A stretch of DNA of 64,000 nt from Metarhizium brunneum. Taxonomy: Eukaryota > Ascomycota > Sordariomycetes > Hypocreales > Clavicipitaceae. Under the pieces are notes generated by a model. The model made no database searches, was not told where the DNA came from, and saw only the letters and a list, made by a program, of their open reading frames with translations. Within the stretch, counting starts at the first letter, position 1. Every line of letters starts with the position of its first letter. A program made the position numbers and the translations under genes. Positions 10,660-37,822 of this stretch are shown here, one piece after another. Location of the stretch: NCBI RefSeq assembly GCF_013426205.1, contig NC_089426.1, forward strand, positions 2,728,001 through 2,792,000, given 5' to 3'.

Positions 10660-11132
10660 TATTACGACCTAGTTGTATACAAGAAGCAGGCTGCAGGTTA
10701 GGCCGGCTATATAAGCTACAAGGCGGCATAAACAGGGCAGATAATAGATTAATAGTCAGAGCAACCATTATATTTAGATCGTAGAAGGAACTATGATCTG
10801 TATAAGCAGGATTATAAGAGGAACCGTAATCTATATAAGTAGGATTATAATTATAATAATAATCTAAAAGGAAATATTATAATAAGAGAAGTAATCTATT
10901 ATAATATATAAAGACCCTTAATTTTACTTTATAAATAAACTTTAACTTCTTAGCTTTTAATATAAATTATTATATTAAATAAGCTTTACTTATAACTCTT
11001 TAACTCTAATTACTTAGTTATAGTTTATAACCTATTATTAATATAATACCTAATTACTTAAATTAATTACCTTAATAGCTTTATTAATATAAATTATAAT
11101 TAGTTTATTCTTTAAGAATCTTAGCTATTATA
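10660..11132 (+). repeat. 5' LTR of element A
   Basis: 473 nt, starting TATTACGACC (RIP form of TGTTACGACC) and ending GTTATA (RIP form of GTTACA). It holds a tandem duplication of about 33 bp in U3 (units starting at 10787 and 10820) that element D's LTR lacks, which accounts for its greater length. The left (outer) edge keeps many CpG/CpA; the right (inner) edge does not. Confidence 0.85.
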
Positions 11133-12921
11133 TATTAAAAGCTTTTATTTAGATTATTATTATATTACTTTAAGTAATACCTAATAACTATTAATATAAT
11201 ATTATATAAAACTATTATTATATTTAAATTAAATAAAACCTAAGAAGAATTAATAATTATTTTTACTTATAAAATACTTATTAAAATTATATACTTTTAA
11301 GAATAAATCTAATAAATAAAAAAAAAATAATAAGAATAAGTTATAATTATTATTATAATTAAAAAGAACTTAAGAGAAATTCTTAGACCTAGAGTATTAG
11401 AATTATATAATAAATTCTTAAGTATACTTTAAGGATTCCTTACTTAATTTAAGGCTTATTATTAATAATTTTTAAATAAAATAAAAGAATTTTTTATTAA
11501 GGTATTATATATAAGAGAATATATAATAAAAGTAATACTTATATAATTTAAACTTATTATAAGGGATTATTTTAATAAAGAAAAAAATAATTATAAAGAA
11601 GAAACTAATACTATTTTTAAAAGTTATAATAAATTTAAAAAAGCTATTAAAAGGCCTTTAAAATAGTTAATAAAGCTAAAGCTATTAAATATTATATTAA
11701 TAAGCTTAAGTAAAAAAAATTAGCCTTTAATTATATTATTTACTTTAAATAACTTATATCTTAGCTTAACTAAGAGGATAAACCTCTTATATTAACCTTT
11801 TATAAGGGACTTAAAAAAGAAGTTAAGAATAAACTTTATAAAGAAAATAAACTATATAACTTATTAGATTATATTATTATAATAATATAAATTAATAATA
11901 AATAATATTAATAATATATATAAAAGAAATAAGGTAAAAGAACCTAAAGCCTTATTAAAAGAAAGAGTTATTAAGCTAATTAATATAAAAAGTATAATAA
12001 ACCTATTACTTATAGTTATACTTTTAATTTTAAATAAATAAAGCTTAATATTACTAAGAAAAATAATAAAAAGGAAAAGAAATATTATAATTATAAAAAA
12101 CTAAGATATTTTACTAATAAATATAAGAAACCTAAAAAAAAATAAAAGCTAATATTAAAAGGAGGTAAGAAATAACTTAATTTTATTAATTAATAAAAAA
12201 TTAAAGTTATTAAATTAAAGGTAAAATATAAGAACCTTAACTAGACCTTTTATTATAATAATAATTATTATATTTATATAAGTAATAAATAAGAAAAAGA
12301 ATAGTTTTTAAAAGAACTAAGAAAACTAAAAAAAGAAATTATAAACTTTATAAGAAATAAGCTATAAATAGCTAAATAATTAGTATAAAAAGACCTAAAT
12401 AAATAATTATTAAAGAAGAAAACTCTTATAATAATAAGATAAAAAGAACTTTATAAACTAAAATTATTAAAATATTTAAATAAAAACTTATATTAAGAAA
12501 TTCTTAATTAGGTATAATAATAAGTAAAAGTAAGAAAGATTTAAAAGAAATAATAATATAAAAAGAAATAAGATATATAAATCCTTATTACCTTTAATAA
12601 ACTAAAAGATAAAGTAAAAGAAATAAGTATTAATAATAATAATATAATTTTAAATACTTTAAAAGTATTTAAAAATAAATAAAGTAAAAAAGAAATACTT
12701 ATAAGGCTAATAGCTATATAAGAATAAGTTATATAATAATATTTCCTTATATTAATAAGAAGATATTTTATAATTCTTATTTTAATAATAAATATTATTA
12801 TAATAATAAAAAACTAAATATTATAGTTTTTAGAAAAAGAAAAGGAAAATAATCCTAGACTCTTACTAAAATACGTAGAGTATATATATTTAGCATGGGT
12901 ATTATACACGTTTATAATATA
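11133..12921 (+). pseudogene. gag remnant of element A, 5' part
   Basis: Starts right after the 5' LTR and runs through gag to the insertion site of element B. The segment at about 12080-12130 reads K-Y-Y-N-Y-K-K-L-R-Y-F-T-N-K-Y-K-K-P, the shape of a CCHC zinc knuckle whose Cys codons have become Tyr or other codons. Many in-frame stops. Continues at 20790. Confidence 0.75.
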
Positions 12922-12926
12922 TTAGG

Positions 12927-13372
12927 TGTTATAACCCAGTTATAAGCTGCAGCGTAGGTCGTAGGTTAGGCTAGCTATATAAGCCACCTAGTAGCTCAGA
13001 CATAGTAAGTAATAAATTAATAGTTAAAATAAGCCACTAATAAGAAAGAGTTTACTAATTATTTAGTAAACTTTAAATAAATTAATAATATATATATAAT
13101 TATAGTTTACTAAGACTTTAATAAATAAAGGGTAAATATTATAATATATAAGGACCCTTAAATTTACTTTATAGATAGACTTTAACTCCTTAGCTTTTAA
13201 TATAAATTATTATATTAAATAAGCTTTACTTATAACTCTTTAACTCTAATTACTTAGTTATAATCTATAACCTATTACTAATATAATAACTAACCGCTTA
13301 AATTAACTACCTTAATTATTTTATTAATATAAACTATAATTAGTTTATCCTTTAAGAACCTTAGTTATTATA
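12927..13372 (+). repeat. 5' LTR of element B
   Basis: 446 nt. U3 has an inverted repeat with arms agtttacta and tagtaaact, shared with element F's LTR but absent from A, D, C and E. Left edge is well preserved, right edge heavily mutated. Confidence 0.85.
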
Positions 13373-16300
13373 TATTAAAAGCTCTTATTTAAATTATTAT
13401 TATATTACTTTAAGTAATACCTAATAATTATTAATATAGTATTATATAAAACTATTATTATATCTAGATTAAATAAAACCTAAGAAGGATTAATTATTAT
13501 TTTTACTTATAATATACTTATTAAGATTATATACTTTTAAGAATAAGTCTAATAAATAAAAAAAAAATAATAAGAATAAGTTATAATTATTATTATAATT
13601 AAAAAGAACTTAAAAGAAATTCTTAGACTTAAAATATTAAGATTATATAATAAATCCCTAGGTATACTTTAAGGATTCCTTACTTAACTTAAGGCTTATT
13701 ATTAATAATTCTTAAATAAAATAAAAGAATTTTTTATTAAGGTACTTTATATAAAAAAATATATAATAAGAGTAGTACTTATATAATTTAAACCTATTAT
13801 AAGGGACTACCTTAATAAAAAAAAAGATAATTATAAAGAAGAAATTAATATTATTTTTAAAAGTTATAATAAATTTAAAAAAGCTATTAAAAAGGCCTTT
13901 AAAATAATTAATAAAGCTAAAGCTATTAAGTATTATATTAATAGGCTTAAGTAAAAGGGATTAATATTTAATTATATTACTTACTTTAAATAACTTATAT
14001 TTTAGCTTAACTAAGAGGATAAACCTTTTATATTAGCCTTTTATAAGGGACTTAAAGAAGAAGTTAAGAATAAACTTTATAAAAAGAATAAACTAAATAA
14101 CTTATTAGATTATATTATTATAATAATATAAATTAATAATAAATAATATTAATAATATATATAAAAGAAATAAGGTAAAGGAACTTAAAGCCTTATTAAA
14201 GGAAAGAGTTATTAAGTTAATTAATATAAAAAGTATAATAAACTTATTACTTATAATTATACTTTTAATCCTAAATAAATAAAGCTTAATATTATTAAGA
14301 AAAATAATAAAAAAGAAAAGAAATATTATAATTATAAAAAAATAAGATATTTTACTAATAAATATAAGAAACCTAAGAAAAAATAAAAGCTAGTACTAAA
14401 AGGAGGTAAAAAATAACTTAATTTTATTAACTAATAAAAAATTAAAGTTATTAAACTAGAGGTAGAATATAAGAACCTTAATTAGACCTTTTATTATAAT
14501 AATAATTATTATATTTATATAAGTAATAAATAAGAAAAAGGATAATTTCTAAAAAAACTAAGAAAACTAAAGAAAAAAATTATAAACTTTATAAGAAATA
14601 AGCTATAAGTAACTAAATAATTAGTATAAGAAAACCTAAATAAATAATTATTAAAAAAGAAAACTTTTATAATAATAAGATAAAAAGAACTTTATAAACT
14701 AAAATTATTAAAATATTTAAATAAAAACTTATATTAAGAAATTCTTAATTAGGTATAATAATAAGTAAAAGTAAGGAAAATTTAAAAGAAATAATAATAT
14801 AAAAAGGAGTAAAATATATAAATTTTTATTACCTTTAATAAACTAAAAAATAAAGTAAAAAAAATAAGTATTAATAATAATAATATAATTTTAAATATTT
14901 TAAAAATATTTAAAAATAAATAAAGTAAAAAAAAAACGCTTATAAGGCTAATAATTATATAAGAATAAGCTATATAATAATATTTTCTTATATTAATAAA
15001 AAAATATTTTATAATTCTTATTTTAATAATAAATATTATTATAATAATAAAAAACTAAATATTATAGTTTTTAAAAAAAAAGAAGAAAAATAATTCTAAA
15101 CTCTTATTAAAACATATAAAATATATACGTTTAATATAAGTATTATATACGTTTATAATATACTAAGTATACTTTTAAATTAAGGTATAATTAAATATAT
15201 TTTTAATTAAGATAAAAAGATATTTAATTAAAGTATTATACTTTAAATAAAAACTTTTAAAATAAAAAGTAAAAATAATTAATAATAATTAAATAATAAT
15301 CTTAGAACCTAATTTAAATATACTTATTAAATATTAAGTATATATAGATTTTATAAATATATATAAATTAAATATATATTAATTATATATATATATAAAG
15401 AATAAGTAATAATATTAATATATATATAAGGGAAAAATCTTAATATATAAAAAAAAATTATTACTTAAATTACCTTAATATAAAATAAAAAACTATATAA
15501 TATACTTATTATTAAATTACTTAAAATATATAATAAATAAGGCTAAAAAGTAATATAAATAATAATATAAAATATTAATAATATATAAATAAATATAATA
15601 AGTATTAAATATACTTAAATAAAAAAACCCTAAAAGAACTATAAAATTAATATATTATAATAAATAAAATTTAAATAAGTGGCATAATAAATAAAAGTTT
15701 AAACCTAAATATAATAAGAAATATATAATAAATTATAATAACTTAAAATATAAAAAGTATAAAGAAATAAAAAACTAAATTTATAATTACTTATATTAAA
15801 TATTTAATAATAGGTTTTACTTTAAGTACTTATAAAATAAAATAAAACCTATAAAATAATACTAAGAAATAAAATAATAAATTATAAAAGAATTTATTCT
15901 AAAAAACTTAAAAAATAAGGTATATTATTTATAAAAGAGCTATAAGCTAATATAAAAAAAAAAATACTAATAACCCTTAATATAATTAAAAGTAAATAAA
16001 GTAATAAGATAATATTAAATATTAAAGTCATAGAATATTATATTTATATACTTATAAATAATAATATAATAGGTAATTATATTTTACTTAAAGTTATAAA
16101 TTATTATTAACTATTATAAAAACATAAAAAGATATTATATAAGTTAATTAATATTAAAGAAAAACTTTTTACTTATAATAATAAAATTATTAACTAAGAA
16201 ATTAATTATCTTAAAGTATAAATTTAAGGTTATTTAAAAGTAATTTAACTTAATATTATAAATATATTAAAATATAACTTAATATTAAGGTACTTATAAT

Positions 16301-19300
16301 TATAAGAGAGTAACCTATTAATTAATTAAAGGATAGGTTAATTAAAGTAAAATAAGATTTTAAGCTAATAAAATTAATAAAATTTAAAAGAAAAAATAAA
16401 ATTTTATTATAACTTAGCTTATAAATAAAGTTCTAAAAAAAAAAAAAAACCTTTAAGTAAGTTATCTAAGGACTAATAATAATAAATAAGTAATAAAAAA
16501 GTAGTTAAAATAATTAGATCTATTATAATAACCTTAATAGTATTATAAATTAAAATATAAATAATAATAAGTAATAAGAAAATAAAAGCTAAGATTTAAA
16601 AGGTTATTATTACCTTAAGAAAAGACCTTATAAATATAAATAAGAAACTTAAAGGAGAAAAAAAAAATAAAAATAATAAAAATAATAAAAGCTTAATAAT
16701 AAAAAAAAAAAAACTTAAAAATATCCCTAAGAAATACTAAAAATATAAAAAATTATTTATAAAAGAATTAAAAATTAGATTATTTAAATATAATTAATAG
16801 GATTATAAAATTAAATTAATAAATAAAAAGTTAATAATATTTTATAAGATTTATAACTTAAATATAAAAGAACTTAAAATATTATAAGAATATATTAATA
16901 AGATATTAATAAAAGGTTATATTAAAGTATTAATATTAAAAGCTAAATACCTAGTTATATTTATTCTAAAAAAAAATAAAAAATTATAGTTAATAATAAA
17001 TTATTAATAATTAAATATAATTATTATAAAAGATAGAATATTATTACTATTAATATTAGAATTATAGAACTAATTATATAGTATAAATTAGTTTATTATA
17101 ATAAACCTAAAAGGAGTATATAACTTAATTTAAATAAAGAAGGGTTATAAATAAATAATAGCTTTTAGAATAAAGTTCAGATTATTTAAATATTTAATAA
17201 TATTAATAAGGCTTATTAATATATTAATAATATTTTAAAGAATAATTAATAATATATTATAAGAATATTTAAATAACTTTATAATAATATATCTTAATAA
17301 TATATTAATCTTCTTAAAAACCCTAAAAAACTATAAGGAATATATATATATAATATTAAGAATATTATAAGATATTAAATTATTACTTAAACTAATAAAA
17401 TATAAGTTTTATATATAAGAAGTAAACTTCTTAGGATATATAATATAATTAAATAAAATATAAATAAAAAAAATAAAAATTAAAGTAATAAAAAACTAGT
17501 TAATATTAAAAAATATTAAGGATATATAAAGCTTTAAAGGCTTTATAAACTATTATAAAAGATTTATTAAAAGTTATAATAAAATTATAATACCTTTAAA
17601 TAAACTTATTAAGAAGAATAAATAATAGAATTAAAATAATAAGGTATAATATACTTTTAATAAGATTAAAGAACTTATTATATTTAAACTTATTTTAAGA
17701 ACTTTTAACTTAAAAAAGGAAATAAAATTAAAAATTAACTTATTAGATTTTACTTTAAGAGTATAAATTAAATAAAAAAATAATAATAAAAAATTATACC
17801 TTATTATATTTTACTTAAAAAAACTTTATAAAATAAAACTTAATTATCTTATTTATAATAAAAAATTCCTAGTAATTATTAATATTTTTAAGGAATTTAG
17901 ATATTATTTTATAAGAAGTAAATATAAAGTTAAGGTATATATTAATTATAAAAATATCTCTTATTTTATAATAATATAATAATTAAATAAATAATAAATT
18001 TAATAAGTTAAATATTTTTTAGAATTTAATTATAAAATTATTTATTAAAAAGAATCTAAGAATAAATAAGTAAATACTTTAAGTTAAAAAAGTAATTATA
18101 ATATAAGAGTACTTATAATAATAAGATAACTTCTTAAGATTAATAAAAATAATAATTTTTAATAAAAATAACTAAATATTATATTAAAAGTATAAAAAAA
18201 AAACCTAATATATAATAAAATATACTAATAAATAATAAATAATATCTAATATATTAAAAATATATTAATAAAATATATATATTATTTAAGAGAAGTACTA
18301 ATATATAAAGAAAAAATTTAAATATTATTAGACTTATAAGAAAAATATATTAAAGAAATATATAAATACTTAGTTTATAAATATTAAGGAATTTATAAAA
18401 TATTAAATAAGATATAATAATAATATAATTTCTTAGGAATTAAGAAAGTAATTAAAAAGGTTATTAATAAATATATATAATATAAAAAAAGTAAGGCTTT
18501 ATAATATAAGCTATATAAAGAATTATAATTATTACTAGTACTAATATAATTATAAGAATTAATAGCTTTTAATTATATTATAAAGCTATTAATATTAAAA
18601 GAACTAATAATTAATATAAAATATAATAATATATTTATAGTTATAAATAAACTTATAAAGTATAAATACTTTTTATTATATAAAAAAGTAAGTAATATAA
18701 AAGAACTTATATATATATTCTTATAAATAATAATAAGTAATTATAAATTATTAAAAAAAATTATATTAAATAAAGGAAATATATTTACTTCTAAGTTTTA
18801 ATAAGTACTTATAATATAACTTAAAATAAATTATAAGTTAAGTATTATATATTATTTATAAATAAATAAATAAATAAAAAAATTAAACCAGATACTTAAA
18901 TAATATTTATAATATTATATTAATTATTAATAGGATAATTAGGTTAAATAGTTACTTATAGTATAATTAGCTTATAATAGCTTAATATTAGAATTAATAA
19001 AGTAAATACTAGCTTATATTAATTATAGATTTAATCTTAAAGTATTTTAAATATAATATAAAGGATTATAAGTAAAATAAGTAATATTATAAGTAAATAA
19101 ACTAAAGAAATTATATAAAGAAATATAATATAAATTAGAATTTATATAAAAAAAAATAATATAATATTATAATTAAAAAAGATTAAAGAAATTAATTTTT
19201 AAGGAGGGAAATATAGTTTACTTACTTTAATAAAATATTAAAATAATATAACTAAGTAATAAATTAGATTATAAAAAATTAAGATTATTTATTATTAAAA

Positions 19301-19580
19301 AATAAATATTAATAAATAACTATAAACTTTTATTATTAAAAACTATAAGGAATTATCTTATAATATATATTTTACTTCTTAATAAAGTATTAAATAATAT
19401 ATTAATAAAGAAAAATATTAAAGTTATAAATAAAATAAAGTATAAAGTAAAATAAATTCTAGATATAAGAATAAAGAATAAAGTATATTAATATTTTATT
19501 AAATAAAAAAACTATAAAGATAAAGAAAATATATAAGAACCTATAAAATACTTAAAGAATTATTAGTACTTATTATAATA
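13373..19580 (+). pseudogene. gag-pol remnant of element B
   Basis: Gag, protease/RT/RNase H, integrase and chromodomain in that order, all broken by stops. The RT active site reads Y-L-N-N instead of the family's Y-[LV]-D-D, because GA[CT] codons became AA[CT]. The chromodomain keeps the shape L-I-K-stop-K-x-Y with stops where Trp is expected. The stretch 19580-20338 after the chromodomain is not explained by gag-pol (see the finding on the 3' module). Confidence 0.75.
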
Positions 19581-20338
19581 ATATTATTAATAGCTTATAA
19601 CTTAATACTAAGTAAAGCGCCCTAGTCTAAAATATTAAAAGTACCTTAGTCTTAAGTATCTTAAATAGCCTTAGACTTTTATTATTAAACTTGCTTTAAT
19701 TTATGCTTTTAAGCTTTTTTCTTCTTCTTCTTTTAATTTATATCTTTTATTTTCTTTAAAGAAGTAAAGTTATAATAAGTTATTTTTAGACTTTTCTTAC
19801 ATAAATAATAATATATATATTAAAGATATATTAAATAATTTAAGGCCTTATTTATTTTTAGCTAAGCCTTATAATACCTTTTAATTAATAGTTTCTTTAT
19901 TAATTTCTCCTCCTTTTTAAGCTAATAAAGTTCCTTAATAATATAGTTTATTAGAATATATTAATAGTATATATTATAGTAAGAAAACCTTATATATATA
20001 GTTTACTATAAGAGTATAAGAATTATTATAAAAATAACCTAAAAAATAATAAAAAATATAATAATTAGTACTCTTAATAACCTAATAAGAACTCTTCTTT
20101 TTAAAATAATAATTATAAGGTAATACCTTAAAACCTTATTTATAAATAAAGGTAACAGTTATAATATAATTAATAGTAGAATAAAATCTCTTAGGTTTTT
20201 TTATATAATTAAATATAATAAAGGAAGGATATTATAAGGAAATAAAATACTTATAACTAATAAAAGAAAAGGTAAATAAGATTATTTATAAAATAAGGCT
20301 TAGGTCTTAAAGGTAAAACTATAAGAGAGAGAATATTA

Positions 20339-20784
20339 TATTATAACCTAGTTATAAGCTATAATATAAGTTATAGATTAGGCCGGCTATATAAGCTACC
20401 TAGTAGCTTAGATATAATAAGTAATAAATTAATAGTTAAAATAGGCTGCTAATAAAAAAGAGTTTACTAATTATTTAGTAAACTTTAAATAAACTAATAA
20501 TATATATATAATTATAGTTTACTAGGACTTTAATAAATAAAAGGTAAATATTATAGTATATAAGGACCTTTAAATTTACTTTATAAATAAACTTTAGTTT
20601 CTTAGCTTTTAATATAGATTATTATATTAAATAAGCTTTACTTATAACTCTTTAACTTTAATTACTTAGTTATAGTCTATAATTTATTACCAGCGTAATA
20701 ACTAACCGCTTAGATTAATTACCCTAGTTATTCTGCTAATATAAATTACGACTAGTTTATCCCTTAGGAACCTTAGCCGTTATA
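20339..20784 (+). repeat. 3' LTR of element B
   Basis: 446 nt, same length as the 5' copy, preceded by a polypurine tract (ataagagagagaat, about 20321-20334). The right (outer) edge, about 20690-20784, keeps CpG and CpA sites that are lost in the 5' copy. Confidence 0.85.
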
Positions 20785-20789
20785 TTAGG

Positions 20790-23700
20790 CATACTTTTAA
20801 ACTAAGGCATAACTAAATACATTTCTAATTAGGATAAAAGGATATTTAATTAAAGCATTATACTTTAGATAAGAACTCCTAAAATAAAGAGTAAAAATAA
20901 TTAATAATAATTAAATAATAATCTTAGAACCTAATTTAAATATACTTATTAAATATTAAGCTTATATAAATCTTATAAATATATATAAATTAAATATATA
21001 TTAGTTATATATATATATAAAAAATAAGTAATAATATTAATATATATATAAGGGAAAAATCCTAATATATAAAAGAGAGTTATTACTTAAGTTACCTTAA
21101 TATAAAATAAAAGATTATATAATATACTTACTATTAAATTACTTAAAATATATAATAAATAAGGCTAAAAAATAATATAAGTAATAATATAAGATATTAA
21201 TAATATATAAATAAATATAATAAGTATTAAATATACTTAAATAAAAAGATTTTAAGGGAACTATAAAATTAATATATTATAATAAATAAAGGTTAAATAA
21301 GTAGTATTATAAACAGAAGTTTAACCCTAGATATAATAAGAAATATATAATAAACTATAATAACTTAAGATATAAAAAGTATAAAAAAATAAAAGATTAA
21401 ATTTATAATTACTTATATTAAATATTTAATAATAGGTTTTACTTTAAGTACTTATAAAATAGAACTAGACTTATAAAATAATACTAAGAAATAAAATAAT
21501 AAATTATAAAGGAATTTATTCTAAAAAACTTAAAAAATAAGGCATATTATTTATAAAAGGGCTATAAGCTAGTATAAAAAGAAAAATACTAATAACCCTT
21601 AATATAATCTAAGATAAATAAAGTAATAAAATAATATTAAACATTAAAGTTATAAGATATTATATTTATATACTTATAAATAATAGTATAATAAGTAATT
21701 ATATTTTACTTAAAGTTATAAATTATTATTAATTATTATAAAAATATAAAAAGGTATTATATAAGTTAATTAATATTAAAAAAAAACTTTTTACTTATAA
21801 TAATAAAATTATTAACTAAGAGATTAATTATCTTAAAGTATAAATTTAAGGTTATTTAAAAGTGATTTAACTTAATATTATAAATATATTAAAATATAAC
21901 TTAGTATTAAGGTACTTATAATTATAAGGGAGTAACCTATTAATTAACTAAAGGATAGGCTAATTAAAGTAAAATAAGACTTTAAGCTAATAAAATTAAT
22001 AAAATTTAAAAAAAAAATAAAATTTTATTATAACTTAGCTTATAAATAAAGTTCTAAAGAAAAGAAACCTTTAAGTAAGTTATTTAAGAACTAATAATAA
22101 TAAATAAATAATATAAAGATAATAAATATAAAAAAGAGAATAATTAGATGTATTATAATAACCTTAATAGTACTATAAACTAGAATATAAATAATAATAA
22201 ATAATAAGAAAATAAAAGCTAAGATCTAAAAGGTTATTATTATTTTAAGAAAAGACCTTATAAATATAAATAAAAAACTTAAAAAAGAAAAGAAGAATAA
22301 GAATAATAAAAATAATAAAAGCTTAATAATAAAAGAAAAAAAACTTAAAAATATTCCTAAGAAATACTAAAAATATAAAAAATTATTTATAAAAAAATTA
22401 AAAATTAAATTACTTAAATATAATTAATAAAATTATAAAATTAAATTAATAAATAAAAAGTTAATAATATTTTATAAGATTTATAACTTAAATATAAAAA
22501 AACTTAAAATATTATAAGAATATATTAATAAGATATTAATAAAAAGTTATATTAAAGTATTAATATTAAAAGCTAAATACTTAGTTATATTTATTCTAAA
22601 GAAAAATAAAAAATTATAGTTAATAGTAGATTATTAGTAATTAAATATAATTACTATAAAAAATAGAATATTATTACTATTAATATTAGAATTATAGGAC
22701 TAATTACATAGTATAAATTAGTTTATTATAATAGACCTAAAAGGAGTATATAACTTAATTTAAATAAAGAAGGATTATAAATAAATAATAGCTTTTAAAA
22801 TAAAGTTTAGATTATTTAAATATTTAGTAATACTAATAAGGTTTATTAATATATTAGTAATATTCTAAAAAATAATTAATAATATATTATAAGAATATTT
22901 AAATAACTTTATAATAATATATCTTAATAATATATTAATTTTCTTAAAAACCTTAAAAGACTATAAGGAATATATATATATAATACTAAGAATATTATAA
23001 GATATTAAACTATTACTTAAACTAATAAAATATAAATTTTATATATAAGAAATAGACTTTTTAGGATATATAATATAATTAAATAAGATATAAATAAAAA
23101 AAATAAAAATTAAGATAATAAGGAATTAATTAATATTAAAGAATATTAAGGATATATAAAGCTTTAAAGGCTTTATAAATTATTATAAAAGATTTATTAA
23201 AAGCTATAATAAAATTATAATACTCTTAAATAAACTTATTAAGAAAGATAAGTAATAAAATTAAAATAATAAAGTATAATATACTTTTAATAAGATTAAA
23301 AAACTTATTATATTTAAACCTATTTTAAGAACTTTTAACCTAAAAAAAAAATAAAATTAAAAACTAACTTATTAAATTTTACTTTAAGAGTATAAGTTAA
23401 ATAAAAAAATAATAATAAAAAATTATATCTTATTATATTTTACTTAAAGAAACTTTATAAAATAAAACTTAATTATCTTATTTATAATAAAAAATTCCTA
23501 GTAATTATTAATACTTTTAAGGAATTTAAATATTATTTTATAAGAAGTAAATATAAAGTTAAGGTATATATTAATTATAAGAATATCTTTTATTTTATAA
23601 TAATATAATAATTAAATAAATAATAAATTTAATAGGCTAAATATTTTTTAAAATTTAATTATAAAATTATTTATTAAAAAAAATCTAAGAATAAATAAGT

Positions 23701-25200
23701 AAATACTTTAAGTTAAAAAAGTAATTATAATATAAAAGTACTTATAATAATAAAATAACTCTTTAAAGTTAATAAAAATAATAATTTTTAATAAAAATAA
23801 TTAAATATTATATTAAAAGTATAAAAAAAAAACCTAATATATAATAAAATATACTAATAAGTAATAAATAATATCTAATATATTAAAGATATATTAATAA
23901 GATATATATATTACTTAAAAAAAGTACTAATATATAAAGAAAAAATCTAAATATTACTAGACTTATAAGAAGAATATATTAAAAAAATATATAAATACTT
24001 AGTTTATAAATATTAAGGAATCTATAAAATACTAAATAAAATATAATAATAATATAATTTCTTAGGAATTAAGAAAGTAATTAAAAAGGTTATTAATAAA
24101 TATATATAATATAAAAAAAGTAAAGCTTTATAATATAAGCTATATAAAGAATTATAATTATTATTAATATTAATATAATTATAAGAATTAATAGCTTTTA
24201 ATTATATTATAAAGCTATTAATATTAAAAAAACTAATAATTAATATAAAATATAATAGTATATTTATAATTATAAATAAACTTATAAAGTATAAATACTT
24301 TTTATTATATAAAGAAGTAAGTAATATAAAAGAACTTATATATATATTCTTATAAATAATAATAAGTAACCATAAATTACTAAAAGAAATTATATTAGAT
24401 AAAAGAAGTATATTTACCTTTAAGTTTTAATAAGTACTTATAATATAACTTAAAATAAATTATAAGTTAAGTATTATATATTATTTATAAATAAATAAAT
24501 AAATAAAAAAATTAAATTAAATACTTAAATAATATTTATAATATTATATTAATTATTAATAAGATAATTAAGTAAAATAATTACTTATAGTATAATTAGC
24601 TTATAATAGCTTAATATTAGAATTAATAAAGTAAATACTAGCTTATATTAATTATAAATTTAATCCTAAAATATTTTAAATATAATATAAAGGACTATAA
24701 GTAAAATAAGTAATATTATAAGTAAATAAACTAAAAATATTATATAAAAAAATATAATATAAATTAGAATTTATATAAAATAAAATAATATAATATTATA
24801 ATTATAAGAAATTAAAGGGATTAATTTTTAAGAAGAAGAATATAGTTTACTTACTCTAATAAAATATTAAAATAATATAACTAAGTAATAAATTAAATTA
24901 TAAAAAATTAAGATTATTTACTATTAAAAAATAAATATTAATAAATAATTATAAGCTTTTATTATTAAAAACTATAAGGAATTATCTTATAATATATATT
25001 TTACTTCTTAAGAAAGTATTAAATAATATATTAATAAAAAAAAATATTAAAATTTTAAATAATAAAAAATATAAAATAAAATAAATCTTAAATATAAAAA
25101 TAAAAAATAAAATATATTAATACCTTATTAAGTAAAAAGACTTTAAATATAAAAAAAATATATAAGAATTTATAAAGCACTTAAGAAAGTATTAGTACTT
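20790..25200 (+). pseudogene. pol remnant of element A, 3' part
   Basis: Continuation of element A after B. Carries RT (L-D-L-K-G-type near 22731, I-I-Y-L-N-N-I-L-I-F at about 22918-22950), the integrase segment from about 24479 and a chromodomain at about 25055-25185. Closely collinear with elements B and D, with many stops. The first 30 bases still carry less RIP than the rest. Confidence 0.75.
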
Positions 25201-25989
25201 ATTAAGGTAGTTTTACTAAAAGATATAAAAGGTATAAAAGAACTTAAATCTAAGAACTTCTTACTTAAACTAAAAGTAGACTAGTTACTCTTTTTAGGAA
25301 TACCTATTATACCTAAGTTATTTACCACCTAATACTTATAAGTATCTAAAGTAAGTAAAATTCTATTCTTAGTATTTAACTTTATTATATTATAATAAAA
25401 TAATTCTAAACTCTTATTTTTAATATGATTTTAGATTTTTTATATTTAAGTTAATTAATTTATAGCTATAAAAAGCTAAGATTAAAAGTTAACTAGCTAT
25501 ATATAAAGCTTTAATAGCTTATTACTTACTTTTTTCTTCTTTAACTTTAGTTTTTTTTATTACTTTAATAAGTATATTACTAAGAAATATTATTAATAAA
25601 AGGATATAAATAAAATAAAAGCTATAATAATACTTATAAGAAAAAGCTATTAAAATATTATTATATAAGTAATTATATTATATATACTTATTATATTATA
25701 ATTTCTTATTTATTATATAATAAGATTTATTATTTTTAAAATAATAAGTATAAGGTATATTTATAAGGTAACTAAATAAATTTATAATATTAATAAAATT
25801 AATATATTTATAATTATTATTTTTCTTTATATTTAATTTTAGCTTAAAAATATAATTAAATATAATATTAATAAAATATCCTAAAGAATAAAAGAAAAAG
25901 GGAACTTATTAATAAAAGAAAAGGCTATAAAGCTATTTATAAAATAAGACTTAGGTTTTAAGGATAAAACTATAAGAGAGAGAATATCG

Positions 25990-26462
25990 TATTATAACCT
26001 AGTTATATATAAGAAGCAGGCTATAGGTTAGGCTAGTTATATAAGCTATAAGGCGGCATAGGTAAGGCAGATAATAGATTAATAGTCAGAGTAACTATTA
26101 TATTTAAATTATAAGAGAAACCGTGATTTATATAAGTAGGATTATAAGAGGAACTATAATTTATATAAGTAAGATTATAACTATAATAATAATCTAAAAG
26201 GAAATATTATAATAAAAAAAGTAATCTATTATAGTATATAAGGACCCTTAATTTTACTTTATAAATAGATTTTAGCTTCTTAGCTTTTAATATAAATTAT
26301 TATATTAAATAAGCTTTACTTATAACTCTTTAACTCTAATTACTTAGTTATAGTCTATAACCTATTACTAATATAATACCTAACTACTTAGATTAACTGC
26401 CCTAGTAGCTCTGCTAATATAAATTATAACTAGTTTATCCCTTAGGAACCTTAGCCGTTATA
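25990..26462 (+). repeat. 3' LTR of element A
   Basis: 473 nt, same length as the 5' LTR, including the tandem duplication in U3. Preceded by a polypurine-type tract (ataagagagagaatat). The left inner edge is more mutated than the 5' copy, the right outer edge less so. Confidence 0.85.
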
Positions 26463-26467
26463 AAACT

Positions 26468-27629: not shown

Positions 27630-27852
27630 TATAATAGCTAAGGTTTTTAAGGAATAAACTAGTTATAGTTTATATTAATAAAATAATTAGGGTAATTAAT
27701 CTAAGTAGTTAGGTATTATATTAGTAATAAGTTATAAACTATAATTAAGTAATTAGAGTTAAAGAGTTATAAGTAAAGCTTAGGTTAATATAATAATTAT
27801 ATTAAAAGCTAAGAAGCTAAAGTTTATTTATAAAGTAAATTTAGGGGTCTTT
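27630..27852 (-). repeat. 5' LTR of element C, left piece
   Basis: First 223 nt (as placed on the + strand) of C's reversed 5' LTR, ended by element D. The last five bases TCTTT (27848-27852) are the RIP-changed copy of D's target duplication TCCTT at 35715-35719. Confidence 0.8.
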
Positions 27853-28293
27853 TGTTACGACCCAGTCGTATACAGGAAGCAGGCTGCAGGTTAGGCCGGC
27901 TATATAAGCCACAAGGCGGTACAAGCAAGGCAAATAACAGATTAATAGTTAGAGTAACTATTATATTTAAATTATAAAGGGAACTATGATTTATGTAAGC
28001 AGGATTATAGTTATAATAGTAATTTAAAGGGAAATATTATAATAAGAGAAGTAATTTATTATAATATATAAGGACTTTTAATTTTACTTTATAAATAAAC
28101 TTTAACTCTTTAGCTTTTAATAATAATTATTATATTAACCTAAGCTTTACTTATAACTCTTTAACTTTAATTACTTAGTTATAGTTTATAACTTATTATT
28201 AATATAATACCTAATTACTTAAATTAACTACCTTAGTAGCTTTACTAATATAAACTATAATTAGTTTATCCCTTAAGAACCTTAGCTATTATA
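27853..28293 (+). repeat. 5' LTR of element D
   Basis: 441 nt. The first 110 nt are the best preserved retroelement sequence in the window, beginning with the unmutated TGTTACGACCC. The inner (right) edge is RIP-mutated. Confidence 0.88.
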
Positions 28294-31200
28294 TATTAAA
28301 AGCTTTTATTTAGATTATTATTATATTACTTTAAGTAATACTTAATAACTATTAATATAATATTATATAAGACTACTATTATATTTAAATTAAATAAAAT
28401 CTAAGAAGGACTAATAATTATTTCTACTTATAAAATACTTATTAAAATTATATACTTTTAAGAATAGGTCTAATAAATAAAGAAAGAATAATAAGAATAA
28501 GCTATAATTATTATTATAATTAAAAGGGACTTAAGAGAAATTCTTAGACTTAAGGTATTAAAACTATATAATAGATTCTTAGATATACTTTAAGGATTCC
28601 TTACTTAACTTAAAGCTTATTATTAATAATTCTTAATTAAAATAAAAGAATCCTTTATTAAGGTATTATATATAAGAGAATATATAATAAGAGTAATACT
28701 TATATAGTTTAAACTTATTATAAGGGATTACTTTAATAAAAAAAAAGATAATTATAAAAAAGAAATTAATATTATTTTTAAAAGTTATAATAAGTTTAAA
28801 AAAGCTATTAAAAAAGCTTTTAAAATAATTAATAAAGCTAAAGCTATTAAGTATTATATTAATAGGCTTAAATAAAAGGGATTAATATCTGATTATATTA
28901 CTTACTTTTAATAACTTATATTTTAGCTTAACTAAAAAAATAAACCTTTTATATTAACTTTTTATAAGGGACTTAAGGAAGAAGTTAAGGATAAATTTTA
29001 TAAAAAAAATAAACTAAATAACTTATTAGATTATATTATTATAATAATATAAATTAATAATAAATAATATTAATAATATATATAAAAGAAATAAGATAAA
29101 AAAACCTAAAACCTTATTAAAAAAAAGAGTTATTAAGTTAATTAATATAAAAAGCATAATAAACCTATTACTTATAATTATACTTTTAACCTTAAATAAA
29201 TAAAGCTTAATATTACTAAGAAAAATAATAAAAAAGAAAAGAAATACTATAATTATAAAAAACTAAGATATTTTATTAATAAATATAAGAAACCTAAGAA
29301 AAAATAAAAGCTAGTATTAAAAAAAGGTAAAAAATAACTTAATTTTATTAACTAATAAAAAATTAAAGTTATTAAATTAAAGGTAGAATATAAGAACCTT
29401 AATTAGACCTTTTATTATAATAATAACTATTATATTTATATAAGTAATAAATAAGAAAAAGGATAGTTTTTAAAAGAACTAAGAAAACTAAAAAAAAAAA
29501 TTATAAACTTTATAAGAAATAAATTATAAGTAATTAAATAATTAATATAAGAAAACCTAAATAAATAATTAATAAAAAAGAGAATACTTATAATAATAAG
29601 ATAAAAGAAACTTTATAAATTAAAATTATTAAAATATTTAAATAAAAACTCATATTAAGAAATTCTTAATTAAGTATAATAATAAGTAAAAGTAAAAAAA
29701 ATTTAAAGGGAATAATAATATAAGAAGAAGTAAAATATATAAATTCTTATTACTTTTAATAAACTAAAAAATAAAATAAGGGAAATAAGTATTAATAATA
29801 ATAATATAATCTTAAATACTTTAGAAGTATTTAAAAATAAATAAAATAAAGAAAAAATACTTATAAGGCTAATAATTATATAAGAATAAATTATATAATA
29901 ATATTTTCTTATATTAATAAGAAAATATTTTATAATTCTTATTTTAATAGTAAATATTATTATAATAATAAAAAACTAAATACTATAGTTTTTAAAAGGA
30001 GAAAAGGAAAATAATCTTAGACTTTTATTAAGATATATAAAATATATATATTTAATATAAGTATTATATATATTTATAATATATTAGGTATATTTTTAAA
30101 TTAAGGTATAATTAAATATATTTTTAATTAAGATAAAAGGATATTTAATTAAAGTATTATACTTTAAATAAGAACTTTTAAAATAAAAAGTAAAAATAAT
30201 TAATAATAATTAAATAATAATTTTAAAACCTAATTTAAATATACTTATTAAATACTAAGCTTATATAAATTTTATAAATATATATAAATTAAATATATAC
30301 TAGTTATATATATATATAAAAAATAAGTAATAATATTAATATATATATAAAGGAAAAATCTTAATATATAAAAGAAAGTTATTACTTAAATTATCTTAAT
30401 ATAAAATAAAAAACTATATAATATATTTATTATTAAATTACTTAAAATATATAATAAATAAGGCTAAAAAGTAATATAAGTAATAATATAAAATACTAAT
30501 AATATATAAATAAATATAATAAGTATTAGATATACTTAAATAAAAAAACCTTAAGGGAATTATAAAATTAATATATTATAATAAATAAAATCTAAATAAG
30601 TAATATAATAAATAAAAGCTTAATCTTAGATATAATAAGAAATATATAGTAAATTATAATAACCTAAAATATAAAAAGTATAAAGAAATAAAAGATTAAA
30701 TTTATAATTACTTATATTAAATATTTAATAATAGGTTTTACTTTAAGTACTTATAAAATAAAATTAAATTTATAAAATAATACTAAGAAATAAAATAATA
30801 AATTATAAAGGAATTTATTTTAAAAAACTTAAAAAATAAGGTATATTATTTATAAAAGGGCTATAAGCTAGTATAAAAAAAAAACGCTAATAACCCTTAA
30901 TATAACTAAAAGTAAATAAAGTAATAAGATAGTATTAAATATTAAAGTTATAAGATATTATGTTTATATACTTATAGATAGTAATATGATAGGTAATTAT
31001 ATTTTACTTAAAGTTATAAATTATTATTAATTATTATAAAAACATAAAAAGATATTATATAAGTTAATTAATATTAAAGGAAAACTTTTTACTTATAATA
31101 ATAAAATTATTAATTAAAAGACTAATTATCTTAAAGTATAAATTTAAGGTTATTTAAAAGTAATTTAACTTAATATTATAAATATATTAAAATATAACCT

Positions 31201-34200
31201 AGTATTAAGGTACTTATAATTATAAAAGAGTAACCTATTAATTAACTAAAAGATAAGCTAATTAAAGTAAAATAAGATTTTAAGCTAATAAAATTAGTAA
31301 AATTTAAAAAAAAAAAAAATTTTATTATAACTTAGCTTATAAATAAAGTTCTAAAAAAAAAAAACTTTTAAGTAAGTTATTTAAGGACTAATAATAATAA
31401 ATAAGTAGTAAAAAAGTAGTTAAAATAATTAAATCTATTATAATAACCTTAATAATATTATAAATTAAGATATAAATAATAATAAGTAATAAGAAGATAA
31501 AAGCTAAGATCTAAAAGGTTATTATTACCTTAAAAAAAGATTTTATAAATATAAATAAGAAACTTAAAGGAGAAAAAAGGAATAAGAATAATAAAAATAA
31601 TAAAAGCCTAATAATAAAAAAAAAAAACTTAAAAATATCCTTAAGAAATATTAAAAATATAAAAAATTATTTATAAAAGAATTAAAAATTAAATTATTAA
31701 AATATAATTAATAAAATTATTAAATTAACTTAATAAATAAAAAATTAATAATATTTTATAAAATTTATAACTTAAATATAAAAAAACTTAAAATATTATA
31801 AGAATATATTAATAAAATATTAATAAAAGATTATATTAAAGTATTTATATTAAAAGCTAAATACCTAGTTATATTTATTTTAAAAAAAAATAAAAAATTA
31901 CGGTTAATAATAGATTATTAGTAATTAAATGTAATTATTATAAAGGATTAAATATTATTATTATTTATATTAAAATTATAAGATTAATTATATAAAATAA
32001 ATTAGTTTATTACTTTAAACCTAAAAGGAGTATATAATTTAATTTAAATAAAAAAAGGCTATAAATAAAAGATAGCCTTTAAAATAAAGTTTAAATTATT
32101 TAAATACCTAGTAATATTATTTAAGCTTATTAATATATTAGTAATATTTTAATAAATAATTAATAGTATATTATAAAAATATTTAAATAATTTTATAGTA
32201 GTATATTTAAATAATATATTAATCTTCTTAAAAACCCTAAAAAACTATAAAGAATATATATATAAGGTATTATAAGTACTATAAAATATAAAGTTATTAG
32301 TAGAATTAATAAAAAGTAAATTTTATACCTAAGAAGTAAACTTTTTAGGATATATAATATAATTAAATAAAATATAAATAAAAAAAATAAAGATTAAGGT
32401 AATAAGGAATTAGCTAATATTAAAAAATATTAAGAATATATAAAGCTTTAAGGGCTTTATAAACTATTATAAGAAATTTATTAAAAGCTATAATAAAATT
32501 ATAATACTTTTAAATAAACTTATTAAGAAAAATAAGTAATAAAATTAAAATAATAAGATATAATATACTTTTAATAAGATTAAAAAACTTATTATATTTA
32601 AACTTATTTTAAGAACTTTTAACTTAAAAAAAAAATAAAACTAAAAACTAATTTATTAAACTTTACTTTAAGAGTATAAGTAAAGTAATAAAATAATAAT
32701 AAAAAATTATATTTTATTATATTTTACTTAAAAAAACTTTATAAAATAAAACTTAATTATCTTATTTATAATAAGAAATTCTTAGTAATTATTAATACTT
32801 TTAAGGAATTTAAATATTATTTTATAAGAAATAAATATAAAATTAAGGTATATATTAATCATAAAAATATCTTTTATTTTATAATAATATAATAATTAAA
32901 TAAAAAATAAATTTAATAAGCTAAATATTTTTTAGAATTTAATTATAAAATAATCTATTAAAAAGGATCTAAGAATAAATAAGTAAATACTTTAAGTTAA
33001 AAAAGTAATTATAATATAAAAGTACTTATAATAATAAAATAACTTCTTAAAATTAATAAAAATAATAATTTTTAATAAAAATAATTAAATATTACATTAA
33101 AAGTATAAAAAAAAAATCTAATATATAATAAAATATACTAATAAGTAATAAATAATATATAATATATTAAGGATATATTAATAAGATATATATATTACCT
33201 AGGAGAAGTATTAATATATAAAAAAAAATCTAAATATTATTAAAGTTATAAAAAAAATATATTAAAGAAATATATAAATACTTAGTTTATAAATATTAAG
33301 AAATTTATAAAATATTAAATAAAATATAATAATAATATAATTTCTTAGAAATTAAGAAAATAATTAAAAAAGTTATTAATAAATATATATAATATAAAAA
33401 AAGTAAGGCTTTATAATATAAGCTATATAAAGAATTATAACTATTATTAATATTAATATAACTATAAGAATTAATAGCTTTTAATTATATTATAAAGCTA
33501 TTAATATTAAAAAAACTAATAATTAATATAGAATATAATAGTATATTTATAATTATAAATAAACTTATAAAGTATAAATACTTTTTATTATATAAAAAAG
33601 TAAGTAATATAAAAAAACTTATATATATATTCTTATAAATAATAATAAGTAATTATAAATTATTAAAAGAAATTATATTAGATAAAAAAAGTATATTTAC
33701 TTCTAAGTTTTAATAAGTACTTATAATATAACTTAGAATAAATTATAAGTTAAGTATTATATATTATTTATAAATAAATAAATAAATAAAAAGATTAAAC
33801 CAGATACTTAAATAGTATTTATAATATTATATTAATTATTAATAGGATAATTAGGTTAAATAGTTACTTATAGTATAATTAGCTTATAATAGCTTAATAT
33901 TAGAATTAATAAAGTAAATATTAGCTTATATTAATTATAGATTTAATCTTAAAGTATTTTAAATATAATATAAAGGACTATAAGTAAAATAAGTAATACT
34001 ATAAGTAAATAAACTAAAAAGATTATATAAAGAAATATAATATAAATTAAAATTTATATAAAATAAAATAATATAATATTATAATTATAAAAGATTAAAA
34101 GGATTAATTTTTAAGAAGGAAAATATAATTTACTTACTTTAATAAAATATTAAAATAATATAACTAAGTAATAAATTAAATTATAAAAAATTAAGATTAT

Positions 34201-34480
34201 TTATTATTAAAAAATAAATATTAATAAATAATTATGAACTTTTATTATTAAAGATTATAAGGAATTATTTTATAATATATATTTTACTTCTTAAGAAAAT
34301 ATTAAATAATATATTAATAAAAAAAGATATTAAAGTTTTAAATAATAAAAAATATAAAGTAAAATAAATTCTAAATATAAAAATAAAAAATAAAATATAT
34401 TAGTATCTTATTAAATAAAAAGGCTATAAATATAAAAAAAATATATAAAAACTTATAAAATATTTAAGAAAGTACTAATA
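28294..34480 (+). pseudogene. gag-pol remnant of element D
   Basis: Collinear with the interiors of A and B: gag with a lost zinc knuckle, RT with Y-L-N-N, integrase and chromodomain. Stops and lost catalytic codons throughout. D has slightly more changes in the RT region than A and B, for example around 31,690-32,300. Confidence 0.75.
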
Positions 34481-35273
34481 CTTATTAAGGTAATTTTATT
34501 AAAAAATATAAGAGATATAAAGGGACCTAGATTTAAGAACTTTTTATTTAACTTAAAAGTAGATTAATTACTCTTTTTAAGAATACCTATTATACTTAAA
34601 TTATTTATTACTTAATACTTATAAGCGTTTAAAGTAGGTAAAATCTTATTCTTAGTATTTAACTTTATTATATTATAATAAAATAATTCTAAACTTTTAT
34701 TTTTAATATAATTTTAGATTTTTTATATTTAAGTTAATTAATTTATAGCTATAAAAAGCTAAAATTAAAGGTTAACTAGCTATATATAAAGCTTTAATAG
34801 CTTATTACTTACTTTTTTTTCTTTTAACTTTAGTTTCTTTTATTACTTTAATAAGTATATTACTAAGAAATATTATTAATAAAAGGATATAAATAAAATA
34901 AGGGCTATAATAATACCTATAAGAAAAAGCTATTAAAATATTATTATATAAGTAATTATATTATATATACTTATTATATTATAATTTCTTATTTATTATA
35001 TAATAAGATTTATTATTTTTAAAATAATAAGTATAAAGTATATTTATAAGGTAATTAAATAAATTTATAATACTAATAAGATTAATATATTTATAATTAT
35101 TATTTTTCTTTATATTTAATTTTAGCTTAAAAATATAACCAAATATAATATTAATAAAATATCCTAAAGAATAAAAAAAGAAGGGAATTTACTAATAAAA
35201 AAAAAGGGCTATAAAGCTATTTATAAAATAAGACTTAGATTTTAAGGATAAAACTATAAGAAAGGGGATATTA

Positions 35274-35714
35274 TATTATAACCTAGTTATATATAAGAAG
35301 TAGGCTATAGGTTAGGCTAGCTATATAAGCTATAGGGTAGTATAGGCAGGGTAGATAATAGATTAATAGTTAAAGTAATTATTATATTTAAATTATAAAG
35401 GGAACCATAATTTATATAAGTAGGATTATAGTTATAATAATAATTTAAAGGGAAATATTATAATAAGAGAAGTAATTTATTATAGTATATAAGGACCCTT
35501 AATTTTACTTTATAAATAAACTTTAGCTTCTTAGCTTTTAATAATAATTATTATATTAACCTAAGCTTTACTTATAACTCTTTAACTTTAATTACTTAGT
35601 TATGGTTTATAATCTATTACTAATATAATACCTAATTACTTAGATTAACTGCCTTAATAGCTTTATTAATATAAACTACGACTAGTTTATCCCTTAGGAA
35701 CCTTAGCTGTTATA
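35274..35714 (+). repeat. 3' LTR of element D
   Basis: 441 nt, same length as the 5' copy, preceded by a polypurine tract (ataagaaaggggat, about 35256-35269). Outer right edge ends CTGTTATA next to the target duplication TCCTT. Confidence 0.88.
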
Positions 35715-35719
35715 TCCTT

Positions 35720-35942
35720 ATATATTATAATAATTATTACTTTAGATATAAGTAATAGTATTACTTATGTTAATCTTATTATAATTACTTATACTATTTA
35801 CTTTATATATAATAAGCACCTTTTTACTAGTAGCTTATGCTAACTATTATTTTATGGTCCTTTTTGCCTGTGCTGCGCGGCAGCTTATACAGTTTGGCCT
35901 ACTCTTATAACCTATATTGCAGCCTGCGGCTAGGTCGTAATA
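35720..35942 (-). repeat. 5' LTR of element C, right piece
   Basis: Remaining 223 nt of C's reversed 5' LTR. Its outer edge (about 35860-35942) is GC-rich and barely mutated, whereas the matching inner edge of the 3' LTR (about 165-244) is heavily mutated. Confidence 0.82.
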
Positions 35943-35947
35943 ATTAC

Positions 35948-37368: not shown

Positions 37369-37822
37369 TATTATAACCTAGCTATAAGCTATAATATAGG
37401 TTATAAAATAGGCCGCTTATATAAGCTACCTTATAGAGAGATAAGGCTTATATTAAAGAAATAATTAGAGTATATAAGGTAATTATAAGAGTTATTTTAT
37501 AATTAAAATAATTATTAGGTAAGTTAATATAATTACCTTATAATTAAAATAACTTATAATTAAAAGTTACTTTTAAGAAAGAGTAATTATCTTATATATA
37601 AAAACCTTAATTTTATTTTATAAATAAACTTTAGCTTTTTAGCTTTTAATAATAATTATTATATTAATTTAAGCTTTACTTATAACTCTTTAACTTTAAT
37701 TACTTAGTTATAATTTATAACCTATTACTAATATAATACTTAACTACTTAGATTAACTGCCCTAGTAGCTTTGCTAATATAAACTACGATTAGTTTATCC
37801 CTTGGGAACCTTAGCCGTTACA
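37369..37822 (+). repeat. 3' LTR of element E
   Basis: 454 nt. Right half matches the other LTRs; the U3 centre (about 37425-37590) is unique to E. It ends GCCGTTACA at 37822, unmutated. TATAA (37823-37827) would be the target duplication, the left copy being outside the window. Confidence 0.8.

What the first reader, a model, noticed from the sequence alone, without database searches (positions are those of the whole stretch)
10660..35942. RIP damage fades at the outer edge of every insertion
In A, B and D the outer edges of the two LTRs keep CpG and CpA sites that the matching inner edges have lost. A left outer has gcaggctgcaggttaggccg, inner copy gcaggctataggttaggcta. D left outer has cgacccagtcgtatacagga, inner taacctagttatatataaga. 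D right outer has aactacgactagtttatccc, inner aactataattagtttatccc. C and F show the same at 35860-35942 and 7840-7908. Three complete insertions give internal controls because each LTR pair was identical when inserted. This suggests RIP intensity depends on distance from the homology boundary (about 80-100 bp) and records that each element was mutated as a unit.
Basis: partly seen in the sequence, partly recalled or inferred. Interest (0 to 1): 0.75.

Follow-up and report, generated by a model that had tools for sequence, protein, structure and literature searches.

The report
Mutation defence spares retrotransposon outer edges
In this fungus the genome-defence process that riddles repeated DNA with mutations (RIP) leaves the outermost 100 or so bases of a family of retrotransposons far less damaged than the inner copy of the same bases, which suggests that a base is mutated only if matching DNA extends well past it on both sides.

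Summary
Confirmed, and general for this element family. In the window the outer LTR edges of A, B and D keep C/G where the identical-at-insertion inner edges lost it (0-39 bp, outer:inner 13:0, 19:1, 16:0). In the same genome 33 LTR pairs with matching 5-bp target duplications (B and D among them) were tested: in 66 of 66 ends the outer copy keeps more sites within 80 bp; from 120 bp inward there is no difference (32 vs 28, 6 ties). Relative RIP dose is about 5% in the first 30 bp, half near 90 bp, full somewhere between 135 and 190 bp. The effect is alike in GC-rich and AT-rich flanks, on both strands and at both ends of solo LTRs, so a chromatin border or LTR-end property is unlikely. Inner edges are not spared, so the paired unit was larger than the LTR. 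Host DNA beside an insertion is also spared at two junctions, but not significantly over the 24 flanks testable. One LTR (L056) is an exception. Best reading: RIP needs homology on both sides of a base. The process is known; I found no such natural dose curve in the papers searched.

The parts
10660..11132 (+). element A, left LTR; outer edge 10660 spared
   Evidence: target duplication AAACT at 10655-10659 and 26463-26467
25990..26462 (+). element A, right LTR; inner edge 25990 heavily mutated, outer edge 26462 spared
12927..13372 (+). element B (nested in A), left LTR; outer edge 12927
   Evidence: (L031); target duplication TTAGG
20339..20784 (+). element B, right LTR; outer edge 20784
   Evidence: (L036)
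27853..28293 (+). element D, left LTR; outer edge 27853
   Evidence: (L001); target duplication TCTTT/TCCTT
35274..35714 (+). element D, right LTR; outer edge 35714
   Evidence: (L013)
12847..12926 (+). A's own internal DNA left of the nested B: also spared (host side of a junction)
   Evidence: L031_5: 8 of 11 and 8 of 11 sites kept at 0-39 and 40-79 bp, means of 5 control copies 1.6 and 2.2
20785..20864 (+). A's own internal DNA right of the nested B: also spared
   Evidence: L036_3: 9 of 9 and 8 of 8 kept, means of 5 control copies 1.7 and 2.6
7462..7908 (-). F, left LTR on the minus strand, outer edge at 7908 spared
   Evidence: (L033: 19 of 22 sites kept at 0-39 bp)
35716..35942 (-). C, first half of an LTR on the minus strand, outer edge at 35942 spared; left limit approximate
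   Evidence: aligns to LTR columns 1-227 of the B type, score 243 against a maximum of 74 in 200 shuffles
35943..36022 (+). host internal DNA (E) right of the junction at 35942: spared
   Evidence: 13 of 14 variable sites kept at 0-79 bp against 3, 0 and 5 in three other copies (B, A, D); 4 of 12 at 120-319 bp against 9, 7 and 8
37369..37822 (+). right LTR following E; outer edge 37822 spared, inner edge 37369 mutated
   Evidence: ends only; no pair test

Best explanation
The element is a roughly 7.85-kb LTR retrotransposon family whose copies were mutated by RIP (C to T on both strands, CpA and CpG first, then CpT and CpC). RIP pairs one whole copy with another copy elsewhere. A base is mutated only if the match between the paired duplexes runs on for roughly 90 bp or more on both sides. 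The last 100 bp inside the element edge have matching DNA on one side only, because the flank differs between copies, so they receive almost no dose; the same LTR sequence on the inner side is continued by the internal region and receives the full dose. Shown: the outer/inner contrast, its length and rough shape, its independence of flank composition and strand, its presence at both ends of solo LTRs, its absence at inner edges. Inferred: that the cause is the end of homology, that pairing between element copies (not LTR with LTR) did the damage, and that the recognition unit is about 180 bp.
For: 66 of 66 ends in 33 pairs (18 D type, 15 B type), sign p 2.7e-20. Discordant sites outer:inner 277:3 (0-19 bp), 294:5, 171:15, 221:28, 63:12 (80-99), 73:41, 63:41, 36:23, 20:8 (160-179), 40:45, 22:27 (200-219). 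Relative dose 0.05-0.06 at 0-30 bp, 0.48 at 80-100, 0.70 at 100-120, 1.06 at 180-223, bootstrapped over elements. A logistic curve (midpoint 90 bp), a raised cosine (complete at 188 bp) and a quadratic ramp (complete at 134 bp) fit about equally (penalised minus log likelihood 3713.5, 3712.9, 3715.5) and better than a straight ramp 3734.6, an exponential 3760.4, a step 3797.2 or no edge term 4384.2. C sites and G sites alike, both ends and both LTR types alike. Same in 16 ends with GC-rich flanks (odds ratio 8.9 at 0-39 bp), 9 intermediate (7.3) and 41 under 20% GC (5.8). Three solo LTRs and one doubtful one (L065) keep high fractions at both ends. Host side of two junctions spared. Two C-5 cytosine methyltransferase genes with open frames, one with a BAH domain, the other with a relative named rid1 among the 120 listed.
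Against: Host-side sparing is not general: of 88 outer flanks 24 had at least two control copies, and near excess exceeded far excess in 16 of 24, p 0.15; hosts already mutated before the insertion would explain it, but their order was not dated independently, and the two clear junctions were picked out after looking. L056 (left LTR, C2:5118830) shows no sparing at its outer edge (5 of 22 sites). Some ends are weakly spared (L011/L015 5' end 0.38 against 0.24 at 0-39 bp; L069/L073 5' end reversed at 40-79 bp, 0.25 against 0.43). A weak outer excess remains at 100-180 bp. No copy sharing a junction was found that would test whether homology across the junction abolishes the effect. Only one element family was tested.
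Confidence: 0.82

Rival explanations
1. Chromatin border: methylation or heterochromatin fades where the element meets unique, open DNA, so deamination is lower there.
For: RIP at native Neurospora repeats, which lie in heterochromatin, falls by 81.8% without DIM-2 (PMC11969663, one section read). The outer-minus-inner difference correlates weakly with flank GC (Spearman 0.29, p 0.02).
Against: 41 ends lie in flanks of under 20% GC, some 2-5% GC, with the same outer retention (0.71) as 16 ends in GC-rich flanks (0.71); outer retention does not correlate with flank GC (Spearman -0.01, p 0.95). B lies wholly inside A and is spared as well.
Confidence: 0.05
2. A property of LTR ends themselves (bound protein, nucleosome phasing, selection for intact ends) protects the terminal bases.
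For: The protected zone sits at the functional ends of the element.
Against: The inner LTR carries the same bases and is not spared (CpA-class sites 4 of 279 kept against 141 of 279). In LTR-element replication the inner U3 and U5 are the ones copied into the next generation (recalled knowledge), so selection would favour the opposite edge. Host DNA is spared at two junctions.
Confidence: 0.05
3. Processive mutation patches start inside the repeat and thin out toward its ends by chance, without a two-sided homology requirement.
For: Any patch process limited to the repeat gives lower edge density.
Against: By reasoning, patches free to cross the edge would leave about half the dose at the edge, and patches cut at the edge would give a rise that is steepest at the edge; the fitted dose is near 5% and flat for the first 30 bp, then rises faster. 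No patch model was fitted.
Confidence: 0.06
4. Cytidine deamination of retroelement cDNA (APOBEC-like) or LTR gene conversion produced the pattern.
For: Both can leave C-to-T differences in retroelements.
Against: cDNA editing precedes insertion, when both LTRs are made identical, and is strand-biased (recalled knowledge); here the LTRs of a pair differ and C and G sites behave alike. Conversion has no reason to spare outer edges in 66 of 66 cases.
Confidence: 0.02

Closest known systems
Repeat-induced point mutation (RIP), Neurospora crassa and other Pezizomycotina
   Same: C-to-T on both strands in repeated DNA, CpA preferred, methyltransferase genes of two kinds in the genome; [quoted passage not shown]
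   Different: Here CpG-class sites are lost as completely as CpA-class ones, and the mutated zone stops short of the edge of homology by roughly 90 bp. In Neurospora the 2:2 mutation rate within 400 bp outside duplicates is 129e-8 per site against 1810e-8 inside (PMC7296669, passages read); I could not measure the outside rate here.
RIPCAL profiles of Stagonospora nodorum repeats (PMC2621366, passages and one section read)
   Different: No inner control or distance scale in what I read; in another family (X0) the authors saw slightly more RIP toward the ends.
Spatial distribution of RIP mutations in synthetic repeats (Mazur and Gladyshev 2018, recalled, not read)
   Same: Treats where mutations fall inside paired repeats as information on pairing.
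   Different: Designed repeats in Neurospora, not natural transposon copies; what it says of edges was not checked (searches did not find it in the library).
crapaud LTR retrotransposons of Podospora under RIP (PMC10787394, 12 of 39 matching places read)
   Same: RIP-mutated LTR family with subfamilies differing in the 5' half of the LTR, as with the D and B types here.
   Different: In the passages I saw, outer and inner LTR edges were not compared.

Membership tests
RIP | C:G to T:A transitions, both strands | tested here: met
   0 transversions among the mismatches of the three in-window LTR pairs; C and G sites alike in 33 pairs
RIP | CpA (or CpN) context preference | tested here: met
   at 0-39 bp inner edges keep 0 of 294 CpG-class and 4 of 279 CpA-class sites against 201 of 399 CpT-class and 150 of 312 CpC/T-class sites (only sites whose neighbour column could be classed)
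RIP | confined to repeated DNA, high TpA/ApT | tested here: met
   TpA/ApT 1.2-1.6 at 9-21% GC in bases 1-38,000, 0.5-0.9 at 47-60% GC from 40,001 on; repeat content
RIP | RID-type (and DIM-2-type) methyltransferase in the genome | tested here: met
   two PF00145 genes, no stops inside the matched frames; one with BAH domain; the other with 397 relatives at E<=0.001 among the capped candidates, 120 listed, one of them named rid1. The names RID-like and DIM-2-like rest on these features; no tree was built
RIP | occurs in the sexual cycle before meiosis | not testable with these tools
   needs crosses
LTR retrotransposon | two LTRs, 5-bp target duplication, TG..CA ends | tested here: met
   31 of 33 pairs with exact and 2 with one-transition 5-bp duplications; best-kept ends read TGTTACG (D left) and GTTACA (37822)
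LTR retrotransposon | Gag-Pol coding region | not tested

The most novel reading that the evidence does not exclude
The spared margin is the footprint of the homology-sensing unit of RIP read from a natural genome: a base is mutated only when about 90 bp of matching duplex lie on each side, so the sensing unit is about 180 bp, mutation is set back inside the match, and repeats shorter than about 180 bp should escape. The margin also orders events: a nested insertion whose host flank is spared was there before the host was mutated.
Probability: 0.5. Interest if true: 0.75.

Novelty: new variant of a known kind. Interest (0 to 1): 0.62.

Why it matters
How RIP recognises homology between intact duplexes is an open question studied largely with synthetic repeats in Neurospora. 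LTR pairs give a natural, replicated control: the same sequence, same age, same locus, with and without homologous continuation. They yield a dose curve that a model of RIP pairing must reproduce, and the method can be run on other RIP-active genomes. Practical consequences: outer LTR edges remain well-kept landmarks for finding badly degraded elements; LTR-divergence dating in RIP genomes is distorted by an edge asymmetry; and the state of host flanks may give the order of nesting and mutation.

Tried and rejected
Chromatin border, LTR-end protection, patch processes, cDNA editing and gene conversion were weighed (see rivals). A search among the fetched flanks for two copies sharing one junction, which would have been the sharpest test, found only a head-to-head LTR pair (L027/L030). 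The host-side test over nested flanks was inconclusive (24 of 88 flanks usable, 16 of 24, p 0.15). Leak of RIP into unique flanks could not be judged: 12 GC-rich flanks show TpA/ApT of 0.84-1.43 with no clear trend over 600 bp, and no related genome without the insertions was at hand. Comparing inner edges with LTR middles by context is biased by how sites were chosen (a site counts only if at least two copies keep it and two lost it), so I use it only to say that inner edges are not spared. Dispersed 5S rRNA genes (23 of 26 matches above cut-off, 47 of 1806 candidates scored) fit the idea that short repeats escape, but selection would explain them too. Paper searches; in their listings and in the passages read I saw no comparison of outer and inner LTR edges, but the library lacks most subscription papers (PMC1460768, cited in PMC4133081 as work on RIP of tandem duplications of various sizes, is not held). 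Other papers seen only as passages: PMC5496416, PMC12543289, PMC3017866, PMC4133081, PMC11969663 (plus section 22).

Rows dropped before counting: of 86 LTR loci, L074 and L075 (alignment score under 750); L065 was set to 'doubtful' by hand. 66 of the 84 LTRs formed the 33 pairs; the other 18 are listed. A's pair was not among the fetched loci and was tested from the window alone. First pairing attempts with LTR ends off by one to four bases were replaced; the retention table used those older ends and is not quoted. LTR place C2:1496-1942 was not fetched, C7:2096755-2097191 lies in L059 but was not counted as an LTR, and further partial LTR matches were not used. Searches score only the best 40 or so candidates, so copy counts are lower bounds.
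Full report
What was claimed.

The window. Bases 1 to about 39,900 are AT-rich (9-34% GC per kb, TpA/ApT up to 1.65), the rest is gene-like (47-60% GC). Much of the AT-rich part is a nest of copies of one LTR element of about 7.85 kb, on both strands. Three insertions are complete: A (10660-26462), B inside A (12927-20784) and D (27853-35714), each with a 5-bp target duplication (AAACT, TTAGG, TCTTT/TCCTT). The LTRs of each pair differ by transitions only. Within 40 bp of the element edges the outer copy keeps the C or G at 13, 19 and 16 discordant sites and the inner copy at 0, 1 and 0 (A, B, D). Beyond 120 bp the counts are 17:5, 3:9 and 8:3.

Genome-wide test. The window lies in a 37.77-Mb genome of seven contigs. 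Searches with both LTR types gave some 85 LTRs; 86 loci were fetched and 84 used. Left, right and solo LTRs were told apart by whether the neighbouring DNA matches the internal region. 33 left-right pairs (18 D type, 15 B type) have the same 5-bp target duplication, 31 exactly and 2 with one transition. At columns that vary between C and T (or G and A) among copies, the outer copy keeps more than the inner copy within 80 bp in 66 of 66 ends (sign p 2.7e-20); from 120 bp inward it is 32 against 28 with 6 ties. Discordant sites fall from 277:3 in the first 20 bp to 63:12 at 80-99 bp and 40:45 at 180-199 bp. Random swapping of left and right labels within pairs never came near the observed 963 of 1014 (20,000 swaps, maximum 882). 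Each LTR type and each end shows it by itself: D 5' 295:25, D 3' 233:13, B 5' 230:7, B 3' 205:6.

Shape. With a model in which each site has its own susceptibility, each element its own exposure, and the outer edge a dose relative to the inner edge, the dose is 0.05-0.06 (0-30 bp), 0.14 (30-40), 0.11 (40-50), about 0.3 (50-80), 0.48 (80-100), 0.70 (100-120), 0.79 (120-150), 0.86 (150-180) and 1.06 (180-223) (10,129 observations, 100 bootstraps over elements). A logistic rise with midpoint 90 bp, a raised cosine complete at 188 bp and a quadratic ramp complete at 134 bp fit about equally and better than a straight ramp, an exponential or a step. So the start is flat and near zero, the midpoint near 90 bp, and the distance of full dose is uncertain between about 135 and 190 bp. 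Sites within one LTR are not independent, so the likelihood differences are a guide and not a test; the confidence limits come from resampling elements.

What kind of mutation. At 0-39 bp CpA-class and CpG-class sites are almost wiped out at inner edges (4 of 279 and 0 of 294 kept) and half kept at outer edges (141 of 279 and 147 of 294); CpT and CpC sites are mutated less but show the same contrast. C sites and G sites behave alike. The genome holds two C-5 methyltransferase genes: one with a BAH domain (C2:5985161, DIM-2-like) and one with an open frame of 692 codons (C5:3295007-3295882, RID-like), whose listed relatives include a protein named rid1 and whose nearest named relative is from Metarhizium acridum at 85% identity. 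The genome is therefore most likely a Metarhizium, an insect-pathogenic fungus; the species is not established here. RIP-like changes at CpA, in some families also CpT, and a rid homolog have been described for three Metarhizium species (PMC4133081, passages read).

Which boundary. Ends in GC-rich DNA (16) and ends in DNA of under 20% GC (41) show the same outer retention (0.71 and 0.71 at 0-39 bp) against inner values of 0.21 and 0.30; the 9 intermediate ends agree (0.74 against 0.28). So a heterochromatin border is not needed, though the outer-minus-inner difference does rise weakly with flank GC (Spearman 0.29, p 0.02). The three solo LTRs keep 18 of 21 and 16 of 17, 14 of 22 and 13 of 18, and 20 of 22 and 12 of 18 sites at their two ends, as expected if both ends are boundaries. 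Inner edges are not spared, so pairing of the two LTRs of one element with each other cannot have done most of the damage. At two junctions the host DNA beside the insertion is itself spared: A's internal sequence on both sides of B (8 of 11, 8 of 11, 9 of 9 and 8 of 8 sites kept in the four 40-bp bins, against control means of 1.6, 2.2, 1.7 and 2.6; A is also less mutated than the controls farther out) and the internal sequence right of 35942 (13 of 14 against 3, 0 and 5, Fisher p 1e-6 against the three pooled, and no excess beyond 120 bp). These two were picked out after looking. Over the 24 of 88 outer flanks that had controls the tendency is not significant (16 of 24, p 0.15); 12 of these hosts are more mutated than their controls even far from the junction, as if RIP had finished before the insertion.

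Exceptions. L056, a left LTR at C2:5118830, has an unspared outer edge (5 of 22). Its flank is another repeat with at least seven good copies elsewhere (83-92% identity over 300 bases or more), but none of the listed matches runs across the junction by more than a few bases, so this is unexplained. Of the 14 unpaired left or right LTRs the other 13 keep a larger fraction at the outer than at the inner end (there different sites are compared).

Relation to what is known. [quoted passage not shown] Weaker RIP near alignment ends was seen in rDNA-like repeats of Stagonospora, and a slight opposite tendency in another family (PMC2621366). In Neurospora some mutation falls outside duplicates (PMC7296669). 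I found no report of the outer/inner LTR comparison or of a dose curve at natural homology edges in the searches listed; the library lacks most subscription papers, including Neurospora work on mutation profiles that I know only from memory.

Verdict. What is added is the curve, the evidence against a chromatin border as main cause, the solo and host-side controls, and the exceptions.

Noticed in passing
G000:C3:4587852-4610238 (L034, L057, L035, L058): Two complete elements in inverted orientation have swapped target duplications (CCTTA on L034 and L058, AGTAT on L035 and L057), as left by an inversion through recombination between inverted copies.
   Followed up: partly
L056 (C2:5118830, minus strand): Left LTR whose outer edge is as mutated as an inner edge; its flank is a different repeat with at least seven good copies elsewhere.
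   Followed up: partly
37824-39900: A moderately AT-rich stretch (21-34% GC) right of the last LTR; bases 38150-39050 have four relatives in the genome at 66-74% identity: another, less mutated repeat.
   Followed up: partly
10660-11132 and 25990-26462: A's LTR carries about 32 extra bases relative to the D type, and no other full copy of that form was among the 40 scored candidates.
   Followed up: no
L065 (C4:4046075, minus strand): An LTR with both flanks GC-rich, spared at both ends but with a strongly mutated middle (9 of 62 sites kept); probably a solo LTR.
   Followed up: no
G000, 23 places: Dispersed full-length 5S rRNA matches above cut-off.
   Followed up: no
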